NCBI GenBank assembly: GCA_019634415.1
Contig: JAHQVJ010000039.1
Location: 1-64,000, forward strand
Length of the DNA stretch: 64,000 nt
Reading direction: 5' to 3'
From: Myxococcales bacterium
Lineage (GTDB): Bacteria; Myxococcota_A; UBA796; GCA-2862545
Of this stretch, positions 2,700-14,923 are shown piece after piece. Each line of letters starts with the position of its first letter. The first letter of the stretch is position 1. Below the pieces are notes generated by a model, which saw only the letters and a list, made by a program, of their open reading frames with translations, was not told where the DNA came from and made no database searches. Made by a program: the position numbers and the translations under genes.

Positions 2700-3497
2700 T
2701 CACGCCCCGTCGACCAGGCCTCGGCCCGCCGCCACGGCGCTCTGCAGGAAGCTGCGCACGGCTTCTTCGGTGTCGTCCCACTCGGAAGCGGTCAGGACGG
2801 CTCCGAACCACCCCTGCGTGTGCCAGTGCCCCACCGACAGCTGGGGCTCCTGCCGCTCTGCGGGGTAGGGCCAGGGGGTGACGTAGAAGTAGGCCTCGGG
2901 GATGCCTGCGTCGCCTGGCGTCATTCCAGCCCCCACGCTCTTGGCCTTCTCCGGATCCGCCGCCTCGGGCTCGAGCCGGATCAGCGTGGCGATGTCGAAG
3001 TGGTGCGGCCAGCACCGCACCTCCGTGGCGTTGGGCTCCGACACCGCCACCTCCCGCAGGGCGGTGTGAGCCACGGAGAACCATCGCGCCAGCGCCACGA
3101 GCTGCTCGGGATCCACCTCGGGAAAGGGCGCGCCATGGATGACGGGGTGGTCGGGCAGCTCGAACCCCATGGGGGCGAGCGGCTTGTCCGTGGCTCCTGC
3201 AGCCGTGGCGGCCTCTCGCAGCCACTGTAGGCCTTCGGCCAGGGTGGATCCGGTGGCTCCGCGTTCGGCGAGGATCTCCTGACCTCGCAGCAGGAACCAC
3301 GTGAGGTCACGGAGCCGAAGGCCTGCGGCGAGCCCGGCGGCGGGTCGACCGACGAGGGCCTCGAGGCGAGCATCCCAGCCCAGGTTCGAGTGCTCGGTGT
3401 CGGGATCGGGGGGAAGGTGGGTGGCCCCGAGTGCGCTCACCACCTGTGCGGCGTGGTGGGCGGCGTTGCGCGCTTCCATGAAACGAGACTGTGTCAT
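2700..3497 (-). CDS. Conserved-looking protein of unknown function with a WPHHFD motif
   Basis: A 265-residue cytoplasmic protein without a signal peptide or membrane segment. Features that look conserved are CWPHHFDIATL in the middle, then EAYFYVTPWPYP and GHWHTQGWFGAVL near the C terminus. Clustered Trp/His/Phe with Asp suggests a ligand or metal pocket. The WPHxFD element recalls DUF5996-type proteins, but I cannot confirm this by search. The N terminus contains AARNAAHHAAQ-type helix sequence. It lies upstream of the aldo/keto reductase-like gene and is divergent from the Rieske operon that begins at 3572, leaving 74 bp for both promoters. No function assigned. Confidence 0.7.
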   Translation of the reverse strand: MTQSRFMEARNAAHHAAQVVSALGATHLPPDPDTEHSNLGWDARLEALVGRPAAGLAAGLRLRDLTWFLLRGQEILAERGATGSTLAEGLQWLREAATAAGATDKPLAPMGFELPDHPVIHGAPFPEVDPEQLVALARWFSVAHTALREVAVSEPNATEVRCWPHHFDIATLIRLEPEAADPEKAKSVGAGMTPGDAGIPEAYFYVTPWPYPAERQEPQLSVGHWHTQGWFGAVLTASEWDDTEEAVRSFLQSAVAAGRGLVDGA

Positions 3498-3571
3498 CCT
3501 GGACTCCGATTGCCGATCGCGCGCGGCGATGTGATGGGCCGCGCCGTGCCGGTGCCACTTCGGGAGGGGCG

Positions 3572-5533
3572 ATGGCGGAACGTGATCTCGAGTGGGTGAA
3601 GGTCCTGGAGACGGGGGAGCTGACGGAGGGTCGGGTGAAGCCCGTCACCTGCCATCGCGCCACCGTGTGCATGACACACTATCAAGGGCGGTTCGCGGCG
3701 CTGGACAACCGCTGCCCGCACCAAGGGGGACCCCTGGGCGAGGGGTCCATCGAGAACGGGTGGCTGCGCTGTCCGTGGCACGGCTGGGACTTCCACCCCA
3801 CCAGCGGAGACTCCCCTGGCGGTCACGACGACGGCGTGGACAGCTGGCCCGTTCAGGTCCGCGAGGACGGCGTGTACGTGGGCTTCGAGGTGCCCGACGC
3901 CCATGCCGCCACCGTGAGCGACGTGATGGCGCGCACCTTCACGGAGTGGGGGATCCGCTGGGTCTTCGGGATGGTGGGACACTCGAACCTGGGGCTGGCG
4001 GACGGCCTGCGTCGGCAGACCATGGTGAACCGCCTCCGTTACGTGGGGATCCGCCACGAAGGGGCTGCGGCCTTCGCCTGCTCGGCCTACGGCAAGCTCA
4101 CGGGTCGACCTGCGGCCTGCCTGGCCATCGCGGGCCCCGGGGCCACCAACCTGCTCACGGGCCTGTGGGACGCCCACGTCGACCGCAGCCCGGTGCTGGC
4201 CCTCACGGGCCAGGTGGACACCCAGGTGATCGGCAGAGGGGCCTTTCAGGAGGTGGATCTGAAGGCCGCTTTCGGGGGCGTGGCCGTGTTCTCGGCCGAC
4301 GTGCAGCGCGACTCGGACCACGCGGAGCTCGCCGCTCGCGCGGTGAAGACGGCGATCCTGCAGGACGGGGTGTCGCACCTGGTGTTCCCCGACGAGGTGC
4401 AGACCATCCCCAGCGATGCGCGACCCAAGGGGCCCGCCGGACGCATCGTGCAGCGCACGGCCGTGCCCGATCCCGCGCAGCTGCAGCCCGCCATCGAGGC
4501 GATCGCTCACGCTCGTCGGCCTTGCATCGTGGTGGGCCATGGCGCGCGCTTCGCGATGGACCAGGTGGTGGCACTGGCCGAGGCGCTGAAGTGCCCCGTG
4601 CTCACCACCTTCAAGGCCAAGGGGCAGATCAGCGACCATCACCCGCTGGGCTGTGGTGTGCTGGGGCGCTCGGGTACCCCCATCGCCTCGTGGTTCATGA
4701 ACGAGGCGGATCTGCTGGTGGTGCTCGGTGCGAGCTTCTCCAACCACACCGGCATCACGCCCAAGAAGCCCATCGTGCAGGTGGACCGAGATGCGCAGGC
4801 GCTGGGCAAGCACCACCCCGTAGAGCACGCCGTTTGGGGAGAGGTGGGGCAAGCCACCGAGCGGATCCGCGAGGCGGTGCAGTCGGGCCATGCCGCGGTG
4901 GATCACACGGCCGAGATCGCCCAGCGCTGGCAGATCTGGCGGCAGGAGAAGGCGAGGCGCCTCACGGAAGGGCGCGGGCAGGGCGTGTCCAGCGTGGCCG
5001 TGTTCGAGGAGCTGGCCCGGGCGGTGCCCGGCGACGCCATCGTCTGCGTGGACGTGGGCAACAACACCTACTCCTTCGGCCGCTACTTCGAGGTGGCCGG
5101 TCAGACGGTGCTGATGAGCGGCTACCTGGGCTCCATCGGCTTCGCGCTCCCGGCGTCGCTGGGCGCCTGGGCGGCCACCCAAGAGGAGGGCACGCCGTGG
5201 CACGGTCGGCAGGTGGTGTCGGTGTCGGGCGACGGCGGGCTCGGGCAATACTTGGCGGAGCTGACCACGCTGGTGGCCCACGACATGAACGTGGTGCACG
5301 TGGTGCTCAACAACGGTGAGCTGGGCAAGATCAGCAAGGAACAGCGTGCCGGCAGCTTCGACGTCTGGCAGACCGACCTGGTCAACCCGAGCTTCGCCGC
5401 CGTGGCCGAGGCCTGTGGTGCGCTCGGGATCCGCGTGGACACCGAGGCGGACCTTGCTGCGTCCTTCGCCCGCGCCCTGGCCCACGAGGGCCCTGCGCTG
5501 GTCGAGATCATGGCCGACGTCACCCTGATCTGA
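3572..5533 (+). CDS. Rieske [2Fe-2S] domain fused to a ThDP-dependent oxidase/synthase
   Basis: 653 residues starting at ATG 3572, with GGGAGGGG just upstream. Residues 1-105 form a Rieske ferredoxin domain with both ligand pairs intact: CPHQGGPL and CPWHGWDF. From about residue 115 to the end it is a complete thiamine-diphosphate enzyme of the pyruvate oxidase/acetolactate synthase superfamily. RHEGAAAFACSAYGKLTG carries the catalytic Glu, GPGATNLLTG follows, and the ThDP/Mg site is GDGGLGQYL plus LNNGELGK. Such enzymes decarboxylate 2-oxo acids or transfer aldehyde units. The Rieske domain would give a built-in route for electrons away from the ThDP intermediate, an inference I cannot test here. 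The next gene, 11 bp downstream, is also Rieske-fused. The substrate is unknown. Confidence 0.88.
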   Translation: MAERDLEWVKVLETGELTEGRVKPVTCHRATVCMTHYQGRFAALDNRCPHQGGPLGEGSIENGWLRCPWHGWDFHPTSGDSPGGHDDGVDSWPVQVREDGVYVGFEVPDAHAATVSDVMARTFTEWGIRWVFGMVGHSNLGLADGLRRQTMVNRLRYVGIRHEGAAAFACSAYGKLTGRPAACLAIAGPGATNLLTGLWDAHVDRSPVLALTGQVDTQVIGRGAFQEVDLKAAFGGVAVFSADVQRDSDHAELAARAVKTAILQDGVSHLVFPDEVQTIPSDARPKGPAGRIVQRTAVPDPAQLQPAIEAIAHARRPCIVVGHGARFAMDQVVALAEALKCPVLTTFKAKGQISDHHPLGCGVLGRSGTPIASWFMNEADLLVVLGASFSNHTGITPKKPIVQVDRDAQALGKHHPVEHAVWGEVGQATERIREAVQSGHAAVDHTAEIAQRWQIWRQEKARRLTEGRGQGVSSVAVFEELARAVPGDAIVCVDVGNNTYSFGRYFEVAGQTVLMSGYLGSIGFALPASLGAWAATQEEGTPWHGRQVVSVSGDGGLGQYLAELTTLVAHDMNVVHVVLNNGELGKISKEQRAGSFDVWQTDLVNPSFAAVAEACGALGIRVDTEADLAASFARALAHEGPALVEIMADVTLI

Positions 5534-5544
5534 GAGGAGATCCG

Positions 5545-7173
5545 ATGTCCGAACGCGTCCCCCATGTCGTGGCCACCCTCTCGGCCCTCGCCGACCGTGA
5601 GCCTGCCTATGCCCTGGTGTCCGGCGTGGACCTGGTGGTGGTGCGCCTGGACCAGGAGGTCCGGGTGCTCTACGGGCGCTGCCTGCACCGCGGCGCGCTG
5701 ATGGCCGACGGCCGCGTGGAGGGACGGAACCTCGTCTGCGGCCTGCACGGCTGGGACTACCGGGTCGACACGGGCGTGTCCGAGTACGCCAACGACGAGG
5801 TGCTCCACCGATTCACGGCCTGGATCGAGGGAGACGAGGTGTTCGTGGACACGGCCGAGGTGGAGGCCTGGGCCCGCAGCCACCCGCAGCCCTTCCAGCG
5901 CGACGCCTACCTCGGTCTGTACGCCGATCCCCACGGCACTCCCGACGAGCCCCACAACAAGCACATCCAGGAGCTCGCGAAGCATGGGCTCGATCGCGTG
6001 GGCCACCACGGTCCCGTGAGTGCGATGGGGGTGAGCCGGCAGGAGCTGCCCACCTTCGACGACCTGCAGCTGCTCACGGCCCAGCTCCACCGTCTGCCAC
6101 TGATGGAAGACGAGGCAGTGCAGACCGAGCTGGTGATCGGTCCACGGGCGGCGAAGCCCCTGCGGCTGCAGATCCCCATCTTCGTCAGCGACATGAGCTA
6201 CGGCGCGCTGTCGGAGGAGGCGAAGGTGGCGCTGGCCACTGGAGCGCAGCAAGCGGGCACCGGGATCTGCTCGGGGGAGGGCGGCATGCTGCCCGAGGAG
6301 CAGGCCGCCAACCAGCGCTACCTGTACGAGCTCGCCAGCGGGCGCTTCGGCTGGTCGCTGGACAAGGTGCGCGGCGTGCAGGCCTTCCACTTCAAGGCGG
6401 GGCAGGGGGCGAAGACGGGCACCGGGGGCCACCTGCCGGGGCACAAGGTGACGGGCAAGATCGCCGCCGTGCGGGGGCTGCAGGTCGGGCAGGCCGCCAT
6501 CAGCCCGCCTCGGTTCCCCGATCTGTCGACGGTGGCCGACTACCGCCGCGTGGCCGACGAGGTGCGCGACGTCTCGGGAGGGATCCCCATCGGGTTCAAG
6601 CTCTCGGCGCAGCACGTGGAGCTGGACGTCGACTTCGCCCTGGACGCAGGTGCGGACTACATCATCATGGACGGGCGCGGTGGCGGGACGGGGGCCGCCC
6701 CCGATCTGTTCAAGAAGAACATCAGCGTGCCCACCATGGCCGCCATCGCACGCGCTCGCCGTCACCTGGACCAGCGCGGAGCCCACGACGTGACCCTCAT
6801 CGCCACCGGTGGGCTGCGCACCGAGGCGGACTTCGTGAAGGGGATGGCGCTGGGGGCGGACGGCGTGGCCGTGGCCAACAGTGCGCTGCAGGCCATCGGC
6901 TGCCTGGGCATGCGCGCCTGCCACACCAACAACTGCCCCGTGGGCATCGCCACCCAGCAGTCGCACCTCCGCGCGCGCCTGCAGGTGGCGGCCTCCGCCA
7001 AGCAGCTGGCCAACTATCTTCGGGCGACCACCGAGCTGATGTGTGTGCTCGCGCGCGCCTGCGGCCACCGTCGACTGGCCGACTTCGCCATCGGCGACCT
7101 GACCACGTTCAAGCGGGAGGTCGCTTACCTTACCGGAGTGGCGTACGGGGGCGTGGTACCGATTCCCCTATGA
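5545..7173 (+). CDS. Rieske [2Fe-2S] domain fused to a glutamate synthase (GltB) FMN/3Fe-4S domain
   Basis: 542 residues with ATG at 5545 and AGGAG 8 nt upstream. Residues 1-110 are a Rieske domain with CLHRGALM and CGLHGWDY, so both Cys/His pairs are present. Residues from about 170 to 530 are the central synthase domain of glutamate synthase. Visible elements are IFVSDMSYGALSEEAK, GEGGMLPEEQ, DGRGGGTGAAP and the 3Fe-4S cluster motif CLGMRACHTNNCPVG. The N-terminal glutaminase domain of classical GltB is absent. Ammonia, an amine or another substrate must therefore come from elsewhere. It could be a ferredoxin-type glutamate synthase or a related amino-acid-forming flavoenzyme. It is almost certainly co-transcribed with the Rieske-ThDP gene. 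Confidence 0.88.
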   Translation: MSERVPHVVATLSALADREPAYALVSGVDLVVVRLDQEVRVLYGRCLHRGALMADGRVEGRNLVCGLHGWDYRVDTGVSEYANDEVLHRFTAWIEGDEVFVDTAEVEAWARSHPQPFQRDAYLGLYADPHGTPDEPHNKHIQELAKHGLDRVGHHGPVSAMGVSRQELPTFDDLQLLTAQLHRLPLMEDEAVQTELVIGPRAAKPLRLQIPIFVSDMSYGALSEEAKVALATGAQQAGTGICSGEGGMLPEEQAANQRYLYELASGRFGWSLDKVRGVQAFHFKAGQGAKTGTGGHLPGHKVTGKIAAVRGLQVGQAAISPPRFPDLSTVADYRRVADEVRDVSGGIPIGFKLSAQHVELDVDFALDAGADYIIMDGRGGGTGAAPDLFKKNISVPTMAAIARARRHLDQRGAHDVTLIATGGLRTEADFVKGMALGADGVAVANSALQAIGCLGMRACHTNNCPVGIATQQSHLRARLQVAASAKQLANYLRATTELMCVLARACGHRRLADFAIGDLTTFKREVAYLTGVAYGGVVPIPL

Positions 7174-7196
7174 TGGGCGCCCACGGAGGCACGGAC

Positions 7197-10100
7197 ATGT
7201 CCATGCGCGAGACCACCCAGGGGGAGATGGAAGGAACCAGCTCCGTTCCTCGGGTCACGCCTGCGTACGCCAGCGACGAGATGCGGGAGCTCGGGGAGGA
7301 GCTGGCCAGGCTCTATGCGCAACGCGATGCGCAGCCCGACGCCGACGTCGCACGCGACATCGCTCGAATTCGCGCTCGCATGCGCACCGGACCGCGGCTG
7401 CACGCCGGCGAGTTCGTGGCCGACGGCCGCTACCGGCTGGTGGAGCGGCTCCCCAGTCGAGGCGTCGACGGCTACTGGAAGGCCTGGGACCGCAGGAACA
7501 CGGAGTTCGTGTTCGTGCGCATCTTCCATGGCGAGTGGGTGAGTGATCCCACCGCGATCTCGGCGTTCCTGGAGCGGGGCGAGGCCCTCACCAAGCTGGA
7601 GCATCCGGCCATCGGACGGGTGCTCGACGCCGATCGCTCCGAGGGCGGCTTCCTCTACATCGCCACCCAGATGTTCGAGTCGGGCAGCCTGCAGAACGCC
7701 ACCACCATGGACGCCATCGATGCCATCCAGGTGGTGGTGGAGGTGGGTCGCGGCCTGCACGCGGCCCACGCGCAGGGGGTGGTGCACGGCGACCTCAACC
7801 CCTCGTCGGTGATGCTGTCGACCCATGGCTCGGCCCACGTGATCGGGTTCTCGGTGGGGCTGCAATCCCACACCGAGGCGGCGTCGCTGTTCCGCGCGCC
7901 CGAGACCACGGAGCGCGGCTACGAGCCCGTGCCCGCCTCGGACGTCTATGCCCTCGGCATGACGGCGGTGCAGGCGCTCAACGGTGGCGATCTGCCCTTC
8001 TGGGTGCTGCGGGATCCAGGCCGCCTGATCCACTCCCTCGACGTGCCCGAGCACGTGCGCTCTGTGCTGGTGAAGGCCACCGAGTGGGATCTGTCGGTGC
8101 GGTACCCCGATCCGGGGGCGATGCTCGCCGATCTGATGTTCGACTCGGAGCTGGTGGAGGCGCTGGCCAGTCGGGCGCGCGAGCGAGGCCGCTTCGACGT
8201 GGCCGGCCGGCACCTCGAGGCGCTGCTGAAGCTGCAGCCCGAGCGAGCCGTGGAGATCCGTACCACCCTGGGCGAGGTCTACTCTGCCCTGGGCTCCTTC
8301 GACGACGCCTTCACGCACCTGCTGGCGGCCCTGCAGTCCTCGCGTGACGTCACCACGCTGTTCGCACCGCTGCGCACCGTGGCCGAGCGCACCGGCGACT
8401 GGCCCCGGCTCGCCAAGGCGCTGTGGGATCAGGCGCGTCGCGCCGACGACGACACGCGCGTGGCACTGCGCACCGAGCTGGCGCGCATCAACCAGTTCGA
8501 GCTCGACGACCCCACGGCGGCGAGCGAGACCTGGAGCCAGGTGCTGGGGGATCATCGCACACCGACGCAGGCCGCCACGGCGCTGCGGGCCATGATCGGC
8601 ATCGCCGAGTCCCAGGGCGACTGGGACGGCTACGTGCGCAACAGCGACCGCCTGCTCGACTTCGTTCCCACCGAGGAGCGGCCGAAGATCGAGTACGGGA
8701 TCGGTCGGGCGTACATCGAGCACCTCAACCGCGAGGAGCTGGGGCTCGAGTACATCGACCGCGCCGAGGCGGCCGGCTGGACGGAGCTCGACATCTCGTC
8801 GCGGCTGCAGCAGGTGCGCGCCCACATGGGGCAGTGGCAGCGGGTGATCCAGCTCATGGTGCTGCAGGCCGAGGGGCAGGAGCTGGCCCAGGCGTCTCCC
8901 ACGCTGCTGCGCGCGGGCATCATCGCCACGGCGGTGCACCTCGAGGAGGAGGCGTTCGCGGTCTACCAGGCGCTGCTCAAGCGGGCGCCACGCCACGTGG
9001 TCGCGCTGCGCCACCTCGCGCGCATGCACCACCGTGCCCACGAGTACGAGCAGGCCATGGTCTACTACGAGCGCCTGTGGGAGACCTACCGGGGCAAGCC
9101 CAGCGAGGAGCCCGAGGCGAGCGAGCGCGCCGCGGACTGTACGGCCTACGCCCAGCTGCTGATCAAGGACGGTCGCGCCGAGGAGGCCACGGCCCGTCTG
9201 GACGAGTCCCGGCGGCTCGCGCCGCATCACGTGCCCACCTTGAGGTTGGCCGGCCCCCTGTTCTTGGGTCTCGGCGACACCGAGCGCGCGGCGGCTGTGT
9301 TCGAGCAGACGCTTGCGGTGTTCAAGTCCGTCGAGCACTCCCCCAGCAAGATCGAGGCCTGCCTCGGCATGGGCGAGCTGTGCTGGATCGCAGGGCGGAT
9401 CACGGCGGCGATGGGCTGGTACAACCGGGCCATCGAGCTCGATCCATTCTCCGTGCCCGGCTGGTGGGGGCTGGCGAAGGTCGGTCTGTCGTCGCGAGGC
9501 GGGCATCCAGGGGTCGAGCGGGCGCCGTGGGTGCGCGCCACGCCCAAGCGCTACACGGCCAACGAAGCCCTCGCACGGCTGCTCGCGGGGATCTTGTCTC
9601 CTCGCAGCACGCGGACGTGGCTGTCGCTGTCGGCCATGGGTCGCGCGATGCTCGAGGGAGGCACCAGCCCCATGCGGCTCGCATGCTGCGTGGTGGACGT
9701 GATGGTGCACAACGACGTGATCACGCCGCAGCTGTTCGAGCGGCTCCGCCAGTCAGCGCCTCGGTGGGAGACCCCCATCGGGGAGGTGGAGCGACTGTGG
9801 TTGGGGGGAGGCGCCTCCACGTTCCCCGTGAACCAGACCTACGCCTGGTCGGAGCGCCACACCGACTCGGACTTCGAGATCACCGAGGTCCGCGCCGTGC
9901 TGCCTCCTCCCACGGCCGCTCGCGCCGTGGTGATCGAGGATCTGCGCAACCCGGAGGCCTGGGAGAACCTGGTCGCCGATGCACAGCCCAAGCCCCCGGC
10001 GAGCTTCGAGATCACCGAGGATCTGTCGGCCGTGGGCGAAGGGCACGCGGGACCCATCCTGGCCCTGTTCCAGGATGGCGTGCTGTGGGCTGCGCTGCGG

Positions 10101-11741
10101 CGGGATCGGTCCGAGCTCACGGTGGGCACGGACACACGCTGTGATCTGCGCATTCCCGAGGACCCGGAGGTCAGCGAGCAGCACGCCGTGCTGCGTCGCC
10201 AGGGTGGGCAGATCTATGCCTCCGTCTCGGAGGGCAGCTCCCTGAAGGTGGCGGGCATGCCGCGCAACGACTGGCGATTGCTGCACGGCGATCGCGTGCA
10301 GTTCGGCGCCACCGAGCTCGACGTGGTGTTGGTGGAGGACGCCCACGAGCTTCCCGACGAGGTGCGCATTCCTCCGGATCACACGTCGCCGGAGGACGTG
10401 GCGGAGCTTCAGGCCCAGTTCCTGGATGCTGCCCGCTCCGAGGAGGCGCCCCTTCACGAAGAGGATCCCCTCGACGAGGACTCTCTGTCCGAGGTGAGCG
10501 TTCCGCTTCCGCCGCGTGGGCAGCCCTCGGATGCGTCCGAGTCGCTGGCCGCCGAGGAAGAGCCCACCGTGGTCTCGGAGGCGTTTCCCCTCGAGATCGA
10601 GGAACCCTCCGAGCATTCGGAGCCCTCGACGACATCGGAGCCTCCGCCCGTCGTGGCCTCTGCCGTCGACGTGGAAGAGGACGATCCGGCGGTGTGGGAC
10701 ATCGCACCGGATGCAGGCGTCGAGCCTGCTCCCGCCGAGATCGATCCGTTCTTCACTGCCTTCCCCGAGGAGGACGAGGAGGAGCAGGAGATCTACGACG
10801 ACGCGCCCGAGATGACGCGTCCGCTCCCGGACGCACCCACGCAGGTCGACGAGGCACCCGCCGAGGTGGCAGAGGAGCCTCCGCCGGTGAACACCTCGCT
10901 GTACGACATGATGGATCCGACGCCTCCTGCGCTGCCCACCGTCGAGGAGCTCTCGATGCCGGCTCCCGCGGAGGAAGAGGGGCCGCCGCCGCTGCCCGAG
11001 ACGGTCGAGGAGGCCCCTGCTGCGACGGCCGAGCCCGAGCTCGGCGAGCTGCCGGAGGACGCGCCCGCGTGGTTGCGGCATGCACTGGAAGCAGAGGTGT
11101 CGCAGGATCTCCCGACGGTGGAGGAGGAGCCACCCGAGGCCGAGTGGACCGTGGCCGCGCCCGAGAGCCCGCCGGCGGAGCCTGCGCGCCCGGCCGAGCC
11201 CGCCTCGCCGCTGGAGGCTCCGAACGACGACTCCGGGCCGTCCTTCGACGAGGTGGTGGTCACGGAGCCAGCGCCCATCGCCATGGAGGGGACCGACGGT
11301 GCGGGCACCCAGGCCGTGGTGGCCGAGGCCATCGACGGGGACATGGTGGAGTTCACCGACGCTGGCGTCCGCACGCCCACGCCGGTGCCCATGCCTCGGA
11401 CGGGCGAGCTGGATCAAGACGACGCCACCGAGACCCTCACCAACATCGCCGCCTGGATCGACGTGATGTCGGGACCGCAGCGCGGCGTGTCGGTGGTGGT
11501 GGGACCACAGCTGTCCGTCGGCCAATCCGATGCCTGTGGGGTGAGCATTCCCGGTGACGCGCGACTGTCGCCGACCCACTGCGTGGTGAAGCGCACGGCG
11601 GAGGGCTTCGTCCTCCGGGATCTGGGCTCCGCCACGGGAACGGTCGTCAACGGGCAGCGGATCGAGGAGACGCCGCTTCAGGGGGGAGAGACCATCATGG
11701 TCGGACGCACGGTGCTACGCTTCCGCGCGGAGGCGAGCTGA
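7197..11741 (+). CDS. Giant pseudokinase-TPR protein with two FHA domains
   Basis: 1514 residues; ATG 7197 is chosen because GGAGG lies 7 nt upstream (ATGs at 7170 and 7173 are alternatives). Residues about 75-320 look like a bacterial Ser/Thr kinase, but key residues are changed. The VAIK lysine is Arg (FVFVRIF), the catalytic loop is HGDLNPSSV (Lys and Asn lost) and DFG reads GFS. This predicts a pseudokinase. Residues about 320-770 are TPR-like helical repeats. An FHA domain follows at about 959-1048 (SEQHAVLRRQGG), then an acidic, Pro/Glu-rich linker of about 370 residues. A second FHA is C-terminal (LSPTHCVVKR, GSATGTVVNG). FHA domains bind phospho-threonine, so this is probably a signalling scaffold that reads other kinases' output. 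It overlaps the flavin reductase gene by 1 bp (TGATG). Confidence 0.85.
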   Translation: MSMRETTQGEMEGTSSVPRVTPAYASDEMRELGEELARLYAQRDAQPDADVARDIARIRARMRTGPRLHAGEFVADGRYRLVERLPSRGVDGYWKAWDRRNTEFVFVRIFHGEWVSDPTAISAFLERGEALTKLEHPAIGRVLDADRSEGGFLYIATQMFESGSLQNATTMDAIDAIQVVVEVGRGLHAAHAQGVVHGDLNPSSVMLSTHGSAHVIGFSVGLQSHTEAASLFRAPETTERGYEPVPASDVYALGMTAVQALNGGDLPFWVLRDPGRLIHSLDVPEHVRSVLVKATEWDLSVRYPDPGAMLADLMFDSELVEALASRARERGRFDVAGRHLEALLKLQPERAVEIRTTLGEVYSALGSFDDAFTHLLAALQSSRDVTTLFAPLRTVAERTGDWPRLAKALWDQARRADDDTRVALRTELARINQFELDDPTAASETWSQVLGDHRTPTQAATALRAMIGIAESQGDWDGYVRNSDRLLDFVPTEERPKIEYGIGRAYIEHLNREELGLEYIDRAEAAGWTELDISSRLQQVRAHMGQWQRVIQLMVLQAEGQELAQASPTLLRAGIIATAVHLEEEAFAVYQALLKRAPRHVVALRHLARMHHRAHEYEQAMVYYERLWETYRGKPSEEPEASERAADCTAYAQLLIKDGRAEEATARLDESRRLAPHHVPTLRLAGPLFLGLGDTERAAAVFEQTLAVFKSVEHSPSKIEACLGMGELCWIAGRITAAMGWYNRAIELDPFSVPGWWGLAKVGLSSRGGHPGVERAPWVRATPKRYTANEALARLLAGILSPRSTRTWLSLSAMGRAMLEGGTSPMRLACCVVDVMVHNDVITPQLFERLRQSAPRWETPIGEVERLWLGGGASTFPVNQTYAWSERHTDSDFEITEVRAVLPPPTAARAVVIEDLRNPEAWENLVADAQPKPPASFEITEDLSAVGEGHAGPILALFQDGVLWAALRRDRSELTVGTDTRCDLRIPEDPEVSEQHAVLRRQGGQIYASVSEGSSLKVAGMPRNDWRLLHGDRVQFGATELDVVLVEDAHELPDEVRIPPDHTSPEDVAELQAQFLDAARSEEAPLHEEDPLDEDSLSEVSVPLPPRGQPSDASESLAAEEEPTVVSEAFPLEIEEPSEHSEPSTTSEPPPVVASAVDVEEDDPAVWDIAPDAGVEPAPAEIDPFFTAFPEEDEEEQEIYDDAPEMTRPLPDAPTQVDEAPAEVAEEPPPVNTSLYDMMDPTPPALPTVEELSMPAPAEEEGPPPLPETVEEAPAATAEPELGELPEDAPAWLRHALEAEVSQDLPTVEEEPPEAEWTVAAPESPPAEPARPAEPASPLEAPNDDSGPSFDEVVVTEPAPIAMEGTDGAGTQAVVAEAIDGDMVEFTDAGVRTPTPVPMPRTGELDQDDATETLTNIAAWIDVMSGPQRGVSVVVGPQLSVGQSDACGVSIPGDARLSPTHCVVKRTAEGFVLRDLGSATGTVVNGQRIEETPLQGGETIMVGRTVLRFRAEAS

Positions 11742-12223
11742 TGAGCGCGGATGCCGAGTCGTTCAAGGCCGTCATGGGCCACTGGGCGTCGGGGGTGTCG
11801 GTGGTCACGACCAGCGACGACGGGATGCTGTACGGGCTCACCGTGTCGAGCTTCACCTCGGTGTCGCTGGATCCGCCTCTGATCCTGGTCTGCCTGAGCA
11901 ACCACAACCGGATCATCGAGATGATCTCGAACAGCGGCGGGTTCGCCGTGAGCATGCTGGGCTCGGATCAGCAAGAGGTGTCCAACTACTTCGCGCGCCC
12001 CGGGCGGCTGCCCACCCCGGACTTCACCGAGGTGGAGGGGCAGTGGACGTCGTCTGGCTTGCCAGTGGTGGGAGGCTCCATGGCGTGGCTCACGTGCACC
12101 GTGCAGGCTGCCATCGCCCAGGGAGATCACACCCTGATGGTGGGATGCGTGCAGGAGACCCACGTGGAGCAAGGGCGGTCGCCGTTGCTGTACTTCGATC
12201 GTGGCTACCGCTCGCTGCAGTAG
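11741..12223 (+). CDS. Flavin reductase-like FMN-binding protein
   Basis: 160 residues of the flavin reductase domain family (HpaC/DIM6/NTAB type). The visible signatures are GHWASGVSVVTT at the N terminus, LTVSSFTSVSLDPPLILVCL and SGGFAVSMLGSDQQEVSNYFA. These match the family's FMN-binding split barrel. Members reduce FMN or FAD with NAD(P)H and pass it to a monooxygenase, or act as single-component flavoenzymes. No partner monooxygenase is adjacent. The start codon overlaps the stop of the pseudokinase/FHA gene, so the two are translationally coupled despite an unclear functional link. It converges with pcm 4 bp away. Confidence 0.88.
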   Translation: MSADAESFKAVMGHWASGVSVVTTSDDGMLYGLTVSSFTSVSLDPPLILVCLSNHNRIIEMISNSGGFAVSMLGSDQQEVSNYFARPGRLPTPDFTEVEGQWTSSGLPVVGGSMAWLTCTVQAAIAQGDHTLMVGCVQETHVEQGRSPLLYFDRGYRSLQ

Positions 12224-13390: not shown

Positions 13391-14923
13391 CTACCGCTGA
13401 GCTTTCCACTGGCCCGAGGCGCGCTTGCCGTCGCTCCAGGTGCCCGATGCCCTGCCCGAGGCGTGGATGGTGCCGTCGTAGGTCGCGCGGCGCGAGCCTT
13501 GCAGCTCCCGCGCCTGGAAGTGCATCTGAGGCCCTTCTCGGTTCCAAGAGCCCTGCACCGCGTTCTTCATCTGCCTCGGGCCGATGGTCACGCAGGCGGT
13601 GCCGGTGACCGTGCCATCCGCCTCGAAGGTCAAGATCAGATCGAAGGGCCGGCCGGTCCGGCTGCCGGTGTAGGTGCCCGTGAAGCCCTCGGGCTCGAAC
13701 AGCGCCGCCGCAGACGGAGGCTCGGGCTGCGCCGGCTCCACGTCGGCCTGGGGTGGAGCCACCGTGAGAACCACGGGCTCGCTGGCCTCCTGAGGGGTGC
13801 CCTCCTCCGAGGCGGGCTCTGGCACGGGGGCGGCGGGCTCGGAGCGGGGCGTGGGTCGGGGCGCCTGTGGCGGACGCGCGACGCGGAGTTCGGCGGCCTC
13901 CTCGGGGGTGCCCTCGTGAGCTGCGGGCTGCTCGGGACGGGGCTCGGGCGTCAGGGCCGAGCTCAAGGAGGAGCTCCCGTTCGGACGCGGGGTGCTCGTG
14001 GTCGTGCTCGACAGGGTGACCGCGAGCCCGGCGAGCACCGCGGTCAAGGTGACGACACCTGCCCCCAGGACCGGGACGACGAGCCGGCTGGTGGATCGCG
14101 TGGATGCGGTGGCGGCCGCCCTTCCGCCCGTGCGATGCACGCCGAGTGCCTGGCTGACCCGGTCGATCTCCGACACGGCCTCGTCGAGGCTCTCGAAGCG
14201 GCCGCCGGGGGCCGGAAAGGCCAGGCGTCGAGCCAGGGCGTCGGCCTGCGGTGCCACGTTCACGTCGGGGGCGCGCTGGGCCATGGGCGGCAGCGGCGCG
14301 TCGGACGAGGCCTCGACGGGCCAGACGCCACAGCACGCTGCGTAGAGCACGAGGCCCAGGAAGTACTGATCGGCCGCTGCCGAGACGTGCCCGGAGGACG
14401 ACACCTCGGGGGCCAAGAACTCGTGACGCGTCGTTCGCACTGCGCAGGGAAGCACGGGGACCTGTAGCAGCGGGCTCGGCAGCAGCGACACGCTGCCGGT
14501 CGGGTCGTCGGGTAGGTGCAGCCGGACGTGGGAAGGGTGGAGCGCCCCCATGATCAGGCGCTCGGCGTGCAGGGCCCGCAGGGCGCGTCCGAGCTCTGAG
14601 ACCAGGCGGAACGCCAGCGGCAGCGACAGCGGCGTGCCGTGGCCGAGGCTGCGCAGATCGTCGGGTAGTGCGGCGGAGAGCACCACGTAGCGATCGCCCT
14701 GCAGCGTCTTGCCAGAACCGCGCGGTCTCCACAGTGCAGGGTGGATCGCGCCGGCGGAGCGCTCGAGCTCGGTGGCGAGGATCGTTGCATTCGCGCCGTT
14801 GGTGGGGGTGATCCACACCTCCACCGCCTCTCGCCCGTGCACGGCTCGCCAGCGTTGGAACGGGCCCAGCTGCCCTCGCCTCGCGAGCAGGTCGATCCCG
14901 TGGATGCGAGGCGTGGTGTCCAA
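13391..14923 (-). CDS. Membrane-anchored pseudokinase with a C-terminal extracytoplasmic beta domain
   Basis: 510 residues. Residues 1-250 resemble a Ser/Thr kinase fold: a GRALRALHAERL helix, MGALHPSHVRL in place of HRDLKPxN, and APEVSS plus DQYFLGLVLYA in the C-lobe. The catalytic Asp, an ATP-site Lys and DFG are not found, so it is predicted inactive. A membrane helix lies at about 283-305 (VPVLGAGVVTLTAVLAGLAV). A Pro/Glu-rich linker (about 310-415) leads to a roughly 95-residue C-terminal domain with alternating hydrophobic strands (FTGTYTGSRTGRPFDLILTF). The topology suggests cytoplasmic pseudokinase, helix, then periplasmic beta-sheet sensor. It is divergent from the outer-membrane-type gene at 14994, with 70 bp between them. 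Confidence 0.75.
   Translation of the reverse strand: MDTTPRIHGIDLLARRGQLGPFQRWRAVHGREAVEVWITPTNGANATILATELERSAGAIHPALWRPRGSGKTLQGDRYVVLSAALPDDLRSLGHGTPLSLPLAFRLVSELGRALRALHAERLIMGALHPSHVRLHLPDDPTGSVSLLPSPLLQVPVLPCAVRTTRHEFLAPEVSSSGHVSAAADQYFLGLVLYAACCGVWPVEASSDAPLPPMAQRAPDVNVAPQADALARRLAFPAPGGRFESLDEAVSEIDRVSQALGVHRTGGRAAATASTRSTSRLVVPVLGAGVVTLTAVLAGLAVTLSSTTTSTPRPNGSSSLSSALTPEPRPEQPAAHEGTPEEAAELRVARPPQAPRPTPRSEPAAPVPEPASEEGTPQEASEPVVLTVAPPQADVEPAQPEPPSAAALFEPEGFTGTYTGSRTGRPFDLILTFEADGTVTGTACVTIGPRQMKNAVQGSWNREGPQMHFQARELQGSRRATYDGTIHASGRASGTWSDGKRASGQWKAQR

What the first reader, a model, noticed from the sequence alone, without database searches (positions are those of the whole stretch)
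7197..11741. 1514-residue pseudokinase-TPR-FHA-linker-FHA protein
Three catalytic positions are lost (VAIK Lys to Arg, catalytic-loop Asn to Ser, DFG to GFS), yet the kinase fold pattern remains. Two FHA domains separated by about 370 acidic, Pro-rich residues suggest a scaffold that reads phosphothreonine marks rather than making them. It is translationally coupled to a flavin reductase, which is odd.
Basis: partly seen in the sequence, partly recalled or inferred. Interest (0 to 1): 0.6.

Follow-up and report, generated by a model that had tools for sequence, protein, structure and literature searches.

The report
Myxobacterial pseudokinase scaffold with adaptor domain
A large bacterial protein carries a dead protein-kinase domain and two worn FHA domains that have lost phosphate-binding residues, plus a small helical domain that other proteins in the same genome carry next to likely cell-death or defence enzymes, so it is probably an assembly hub and not an enzyme or a phosphate reader.

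Summary
The ORF is real (7197-11741, 1514 aa) and the catalytic losses are as described: VAIK Lys→Arg108, catalytic-loop Asn→Ser204, DFG→Gly217-Phe-Ser. HRD Arg, HRDxK Lys, the Gly-loop and much of the activation loop are also lost, yet an AF2 model is a PknA/PknB-like kinase fold. Homologues occur in 7 of 21 genomes of its own Myxococcota family and nowhere else searched. Six of seven are pseudokinases; one (G010) keeps every catalytic residue. The fold, not the active site, is conserved.

Two corrections. (1) Both FHA domains lack the key phosphate-binding Arg and Asn, so "reads phosphothreonine" is not supported. An independent profile finds seven copies in this genome, fused to TIR, trypsin-like protease, KAP NTPase, an active kinase or membrane helices, the pattern described for "effector-associated domains" in bacterial conflict systems.

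The flavin-reductase overlap (TGATG) is real and kept in a second species of the genus, but that gene is absent at this locus in G012; upstream neighbours are not kept.

Best reading: a catalytically dead assembly hub in an EAD-like effector network. The pseudokinase is well supported; the network role is inferred.

The parts
7185..7189 (+). Shine-Dalgarno GGAGG, 7 nt before the start codon
   Evidence: sequence
7197..11741 (+). CDS, 1514 aa: pre-kinase helices - pseudokinase - TPR - EAD-like domain - FHA1 - acidic linker - FHA2
7260..7406 (+). pre-kinase helical segment (residues 22-70), shared with active kinases L037, L038, L040
   Evidence: alignment; two helices in the AF2 model
7407..8141 (+). 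pseudokinase domain (residues 71-315)
   Evidence: Pfam; PDB sequence match; AF2; Foldseek
7518..7520 (+). R108 at the beta3 (VAIK) lysine position
7785..7808 (+). catalytic loop HGDLNPSS (H197-S204): HRD Arg, Lys and Asn lost, Asp kept
7845..7904 (+). GFS in place of DFG, and a shortened activation segment ending in APE (residues 217-236)
8148..9491 (+). TPR repeats (about residues 318-765)
   Evidence: Pfam
9555..9800 (+). EAD-like helical adaptor domain (residues 787-868), not in Pfam
   Evidence: independent profile A6 hits C8:9558-9800 at E 5.9e-5; HMM of 25 non-family copies 26.9 bits; hhalign probability 97.9, E 4.2e-13
10056..10337 (+). FHA1 (about residues 954-1047), degenerate: no GR Arg, no Asn
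10347..11441 (+). acidic Pro-rich linker (residues 1051-1415); short stretch APAWLRxALEA shared with the same-genus species
11448..11732 (+). FHA2 (about residues 1418-1512): GQ for GR, SATGT for SxNGT, VNG kept
11739..11743 (+). TGATG stop/start overlap with the flavin reductase gene; the same overlap is in G001
11741..12223 (+). flavin reductase-like gene, translationally coupled; linked in two species of the genus only
   Evidence: Pfam PF01613 6.1e-41

Best explanation
It is a cytoplasmic, catalytically dead kinase-fold hub of a Myxococcota signalling or conflict network. SHOWN: the kinase fold is kept while phosphotransfer and metal residues are lost in six of seven homologues; both FHA domains lack canonical phosphothreonine-binding residues; the protein carries an EAD-like helical domain that this genome also fuses to a TIR domain, a trypsin-like protease, a KAP NTPase, two membrane proteins and an active kinase (L037), which also has the closest kinase domain found in this genome. 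INFERRED: the EAD-like domain pairs with like domains on those proteins and brings them to the hub; the pseudokinase and its pre-kinase helices bind a partner, possibly the L037 kinase, without transferring phosphate; the TPR array holds a client or trigger; the two FHA folds on a flexible acidic tether are protein-binding beta-sandwiches that no longer need phosphothreonine.
For: Fold. Active-site decay with conserved APE, alphaF Asp and alphaI Arg. Purifying selection. One intact member, G010/L032 (VVVK, HRDLKPAN, DFD). FHA residues. EAD-like domain: found unprompted when the family's post-TPR profile hit L064 (7.8e-8) and L048 (2.8e-7); recovered reciprocally with a profile lacking family members; hhalign probability 97.6-97.9 and score 66-68 against a shuffle maximum of 13.9 (shuffles of the family columns run). 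Fusion partners: TIR_2 5.7e-15, Trypsin_2 1.2e-22, KAP 3.6e-12, NACHT 1.5e-13, CHAT 8e-7, SEFIR 1.7e-12, Pkinase 3.9e-33; TIR, SLOG and DnaA. Precedent: EADs as coupling adaptors, and mostly inactive kinases plus occasional FHA domains in conflict systems (PMC7159879).
Against: No operon partner with an EAD-like domain adjoins the gene. The core parts of known EAD systems (vWA/MoxR, VMAP, GAP1) were not searched for. The domain fails the Pfam EAD1 test and its link to EAD1 by hhalign is weak (18%, E 0.0013). Homologue L034 has barely any EAD-like signal. The hub is patchy (7 of 21 genomes), whereas the EAD-like domain occurs in genomes without the hub. No binding or phenotype data exist.
Confidence: 0.5

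Rival explanations
1. Phosphothreonine-reading scaffold: the dead kinase is phosphorylated or docks a kinase, and the FHA pair reads pThr marks.
For: Two FHA folds above Pfam cut-off. FHA2 keeps the SxxH Ser and the VNG motif. MviN pseudokinase with FhaA is a precedent in which an FHA domain reads a phosphorylated pseudokinase tail (PMC12599244).
Against: GR Arg is lost in both FHA domains, with FHA2 Gln also in the same genus; the SxNG Asn is lost; FHA1 lacks the Arg in all five homologues compared. FHA1 diverges fast (41% identity within the genus). Only L032 has a canonical FHA, and it also has the intact kinase.
Confidence: 0.15
2. Active or alternative-activity kinase: retained Asp199 plus basic residues support ATP binding or non-canonical chemistry, as proposed for DLHK pseudokinases or known for SelO/SidJ.
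For: HRD Asp is kept in the window and in G001; Arg replaces the beta3 Lys; some pseudokinase families have proposed arginine-mediated ATP binding (PMC12599244).
Against: The DFG Asp is lost in all six pseudokinases; the HRD Asp is lost in four; beta3 is Q in the same genus and E in two others; the Gly-loop and activation segment are reduced. No conserved substitute constellation is seen.
Confidence: 0.1
3. Redox-linked regulator: the pseudokinase hub controls, or is co-made with, the coupled flavin reductase.
For: TGATG overlap kept in two species of the genus although the flavin reductases are only 51% identical.
Against: No flavin reductase between the homologue and PCMT in G012. In G009, G017, G018 and G012 the flavin reductase lies on another contig. 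Upstream genes differ between the two species of the genus.
Confidence: 0.1
4. Decaying protein without present function.
For: Many catalytic and FHA residues lost; patchy distribution.
Against: Full-length open frames in five genomes and partial ones at contig ends in two; kinase domain 69% identical within the genus with dN/dS about 0.4; fold-determining residues invariant.
Confidence: 0.05

Closest known systems
MviN/Rv3910 pseudokinase (ActPs3 family) with FhaA, Mycobacterium tuberculosis
   Same: dead kinase fold with scaffold use and an FHA partner; found by sequence (1.9e-7) and by fold (3otv, 3uqc)
   Different: MviN is a membrane protein and the FHA that reads its pThr is in a separate protein; here kinase, TPR, EAD-like domain and two worn FHAs are one polypeptide, and the FHAs lack canonical pThr-binding residues
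Effector-associated domains (EAD1 and others) of NTP-dependent conflict systems (PMC7159879)
   Same: small helical domain repeated in one genome and fused to TIR, trypsin-like, caspase-like (CHAT), STAND and kinase proteins; inactive kinases and FHA domains reported in such systems
   Different: not matched by Pfam EAD1; only a weak profile link; the core NTPase system was not identified here
Bacterial pseudokinase families ActPs1-3, GLW, CP1, DYD, DLHK (PMC12599244)
   Same: conserved bacterial Ser/Thr pseudokinases with degenerate VAIK, HRD and DFG motifs
   Different: CP1 is always linked to COG3899 and DLHK often to DEAD helicase or DNA2; neither partner is here. The review text does not mention TPR or Myxococcota
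EssB/YukC pseudokinase of type VIIb secretion
   Same: degraded Gly-loop, shortened activation loop, scaffold role (PMC12599244)
   Different: membrane secretion component of Firmicutes; not this arrangement of TPR, EAD-like and FHA domains

Membership tests
Hanks-type kinase fold | kinase-like sequence and bilobal fold | tested here: met
   Pfam 46.1 bits against cut-off 31.7; AF2 pLDDT 81.7; Foldseek best 6i2p/4x3f, TM up to 0.68 by query
Active Ser/Thr kinase | beta3 Lys, HRD Asp, catalytic-loop Asn, DFG Asp | tested here: not met
   R, D, S, G in the window; only HRD Asp kept
[quoted passage not shown]
Canonical pThr-binding FHA | GR Arg, SxxH Ser and SxNG Asn | tested here: not met
   FHA1 T/S/none; FHA2 Q/S/T
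FHA fold | Pfam FHA above cut-off | tested here: met
   two stretches, 76.9 bits in all; the AF2 model of FHA1 alone was poor, pLDDT 49
EAD1 (PF19955) | match to the Pfam EAD1 model | tested here: not met
   no match at E<=0.01 in the own genome; no match for the domain copies
EAD1 (PF19955) | profile-profile homology to EAD1 | tested here: inconclusive
   18% probability, E 0.0013, score 21.2 against shuffle maximum 14.0 over 71 columns
EAD-like coupling domain (works like) | same small helical domain fused to several different effectors in one genome | tested here: met
   seven copies in the own genome on TIR, trypsin, KAP, kinase, two TM proteins and the hub
EAD-like coupling domain (works like) | homotypic binding | not testable with these tools
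   needs biochemistry
CP1 pseudokinase | fusion to COG3899 | tested here: not met
   no ATPase domain found in the protein by Pfam
DLHK pseudokinase | HRD Asp and catalytic-loop Asn kept, with conserved active-site arginines | tested here: not met
   catalytic-loop Asn is Ser204; beta3 Arg and HRD Asp are not conserved in the family
TIR domain at the N-terminus of homologues L032-L035 | TIR profile match | tested here: inconclusive
   no Pfam or PDB support; resemblance by eye only

The most novel reading that the evidence does not exclude
The protein is the central hub of an undescribed Myxococcota conflict or regulated-death network with its own EAD-like adaptor domain, in which a lineage converted an active kinase with a working FHA reader (as still seen in G010) into a scaffold that neither writes nor reads phosphate.
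Probability: 0.3. Interest if true: 0.75.

Novelty: new variant of a known kind. Interest (0 to 1): 0.5.

Why it matters
Bacterial pseudokinases are largely unstudied (PMC12599244). This family offers a natural comparison: one homologue keeps all kinase and FHA residues, six lost the kinase residues and several lost the FHA ones. It also ties a pseudokinase to an adaptor domain shared with TIR, protease and NTPase proteins in the same genome, which makes the proposal that inactive kinases serve as assembly parts of bacterial conflict systems directly testable by domain-domain binding.

Tried and rejected
EAD1 membership: rejected as a filing, kept as 'works like'. N-terminal TIR in L032-L035: seen by eye, no profile support. 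Single loss of kinase activity: with catalytic columns removed the six pseudokinases are no longer a supported clade (50/31), the two alternative groupings tested are not rejected, and the TPR tree places L032 inside, so one or several losses remain open; the first tree leaned on the catalytic columns. Rieske/TPP and Rieske/glutamate-synthase neighbours as functional partners: rejected, absent upstream in the same genus and found in genomes without the hub. First impression that the flavin reductase link was unique to this genome: corrected when L055 showed linker, FHA2, flavin reductase and PCMT in G001. Viral-contig search found no relative. AF2 of FHA1 uninformative. PADLOC hits of the kinase part are generic kinase models. 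In one search the eighth query was a stray filler string, which is not used, and the first residues of the ninth were mistyped.

Full report
OBSERVATION. The ORF 7197-11741 translates to 1514 residues, starts behind a GGAGG Shine-Dalgarno and ends in a TGATG overlap with the next gene. Pfam gives Pkinase 46 bits, TPR repeats, and two FHA stretches. The genome (G000, 9.8 Mb, 254 contigs) is rich in kinases, with about a hundred matches to this query, most of them to its kinase part. The related MAG HyVt-553 is placed in Myxococcota.

THE KINASE DOMAIN. Residue by residue the domain has R108 for the beta3 Lys, HGDLNPSS for HRDxKPxN and GFS for DFG. The Gly-loop is degenerate and the activation segment is 17 residues against 25-26 in active relatives. 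An AF2 model from five sequences has mean pLDDT 81.7 and matches PknB and PknA best, MviN/Rv3910 also appearing. So the fold stands and the chemistry is gone. Across homologues the beta3 position reads R, Q, R, R, E, E in the six pseudokinases, the DFG Asp is lost in all six and the HRD Asp in four, while APE, the alphaF Asp and the alphaI Arg are invariant. NG86 dN/dS against the same-genus homologue is 0.41 for the kinase, 0.33 for TPR and 0.71 for FHA1; these are rough, since codon bias was not modelled.

FAMILY. Homologues occur in 7 of 21 genomes of the GTDB family and in no other genome of the class or of the phylum sample searched. One, L032 in G010, has VVVK, HRDLKPAN, DFD and a canonical FHA with GR, SRVH and SSNG. 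The others are pseudokinases. Whether the loss happened once or several times is unresolved: the tree with catalytic columns favours once, without them it does not, and a TPR tree places L032 inside.

FHA DOMAINS. FHA1 has T where the GR Arg should be and no Asn; FHA2 has Q and SATGT. The FHA2 Gln is shared with G001. Only L033 and L032 keep the FHA2 Arg and only L032 the Asn. On established knowledge these residues contact phosphothreonine, so reading of pThr is unlikely, though not excluded without assays.

THE MISSED DOMAIN. A profile of the family-specific post-TPR region hit two otherwise unrelated proteins: L048 in this genome and L064 in G044. A profile of only those two recovers the window at 9558-9800 and finds 27 places in 12 of 60 genomes, seven in this genome. 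Profile-profile probability is 97.6-97.9 with E 2.9e-12 to 4.2e-13; column shuffles, run against the two-sequence profile, reach a score of 13.9 against 65.7. An HMM of 25 non-family copies places it at residues 787-868. Its partners elsewhere include TIR, SEFIR, trypsin, CHAT, NACHT, KAP and active kinases, and a SLOG-TIR-DnaA protein. In this genome the carriers are C233 and C190 (membrane helices, by eye), C177 (KAP), C212 (TIR), C166 (trypsin-like), C162 (active kinase L037, which also holds the kinase domain closest to this one in the genome) and the window. This is how effector-associated domains behave in PMC7159879, where most kinase domains of such systems also lack catalytic residues. 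It is not Pfam EAD1; a distant link is possible.

NEIGHBOURS. The flavin reductase follows the gene with the same TGATG overlap in G001, then PCMT on the other strand. In G012 PCMT follows directly and overlaps the end of the hub gene, and the flavin reductase homologue is on another contig. Upstream genes differ between the two species. The coupling is therefore real but confined, on present data, to the genus.

MECHANISM AND RANKING. Most likely (0.5) the protein is a hub that assembles EAD-like partners, with the pseudokinase and FHA folds as protein-binding surfaces. Shown: dead kinase site, degraded FHA sites, shared adaptor domain. Inferred: homotypic binding, partner identity, link to conflict or cell death. 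Rivals are pThr scaffold (0.15), alternative activity (0.1), redox-linked regulator (0.1) and decay (0.05).

NOVELTY. Pseudokinase scaffolds and EAD systems are both known; this domain order and this adaptor family were not found in the papers or Pfam searched. I class it as a new variant of a known kind.

Noticed in passing
13391-14923 (-): A second kinase-like protein 1.65 kb downstream with MGALHPSH in place of HRDxKPxN and no DFG, followed by a hydrophobic stretch that reads as a membrane helix and a C-terminal part that looks beta-rich; PDB matches to kinases at about 1e-5. Probably another pseudokinase.
   Followed up: partly
L064:2564-7741: 1726-aa protein in G044 combining SLOG-type, EAD-like, TIR (ThsB-like, 1.3e-16) and DnaA ATPase plus DnaA DNA-binding domains: an unusual fusion.
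   Followed up: partly
3566-5533 and 5545-7173 (+): Two adjacent enzymes each with an N-terminal Rieske domain: a TPP enzyme and a glutamate-synthase-like FMN domain. Both, together with the gene at 2700-3497, lie close together in G013 too (L060), so they look like a cassette of their own.
   Followed up: partly
L032:9483-14327: The only homologue with an intact kinase site and a canonical FHA; it seems to hold a third FHA-like stretch.
   Followed up: partly
10347-11441: In the otherwise fast-changing linker the stretch APAWLR[HD]ALEA is shared with the same-genus species, a possible binding motif.
   Followed up: no
order-wide EAD-like copies: The EAD-like domain has no Pfam model although it is found in 12 of 60 genomes of the order, with up to seven copies per genome.
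   Followed up: yes
L057 (G012): The flavin reductase homologue in G012 is directly followed by a kinase-like gene on the same strand.
   Followed up: no
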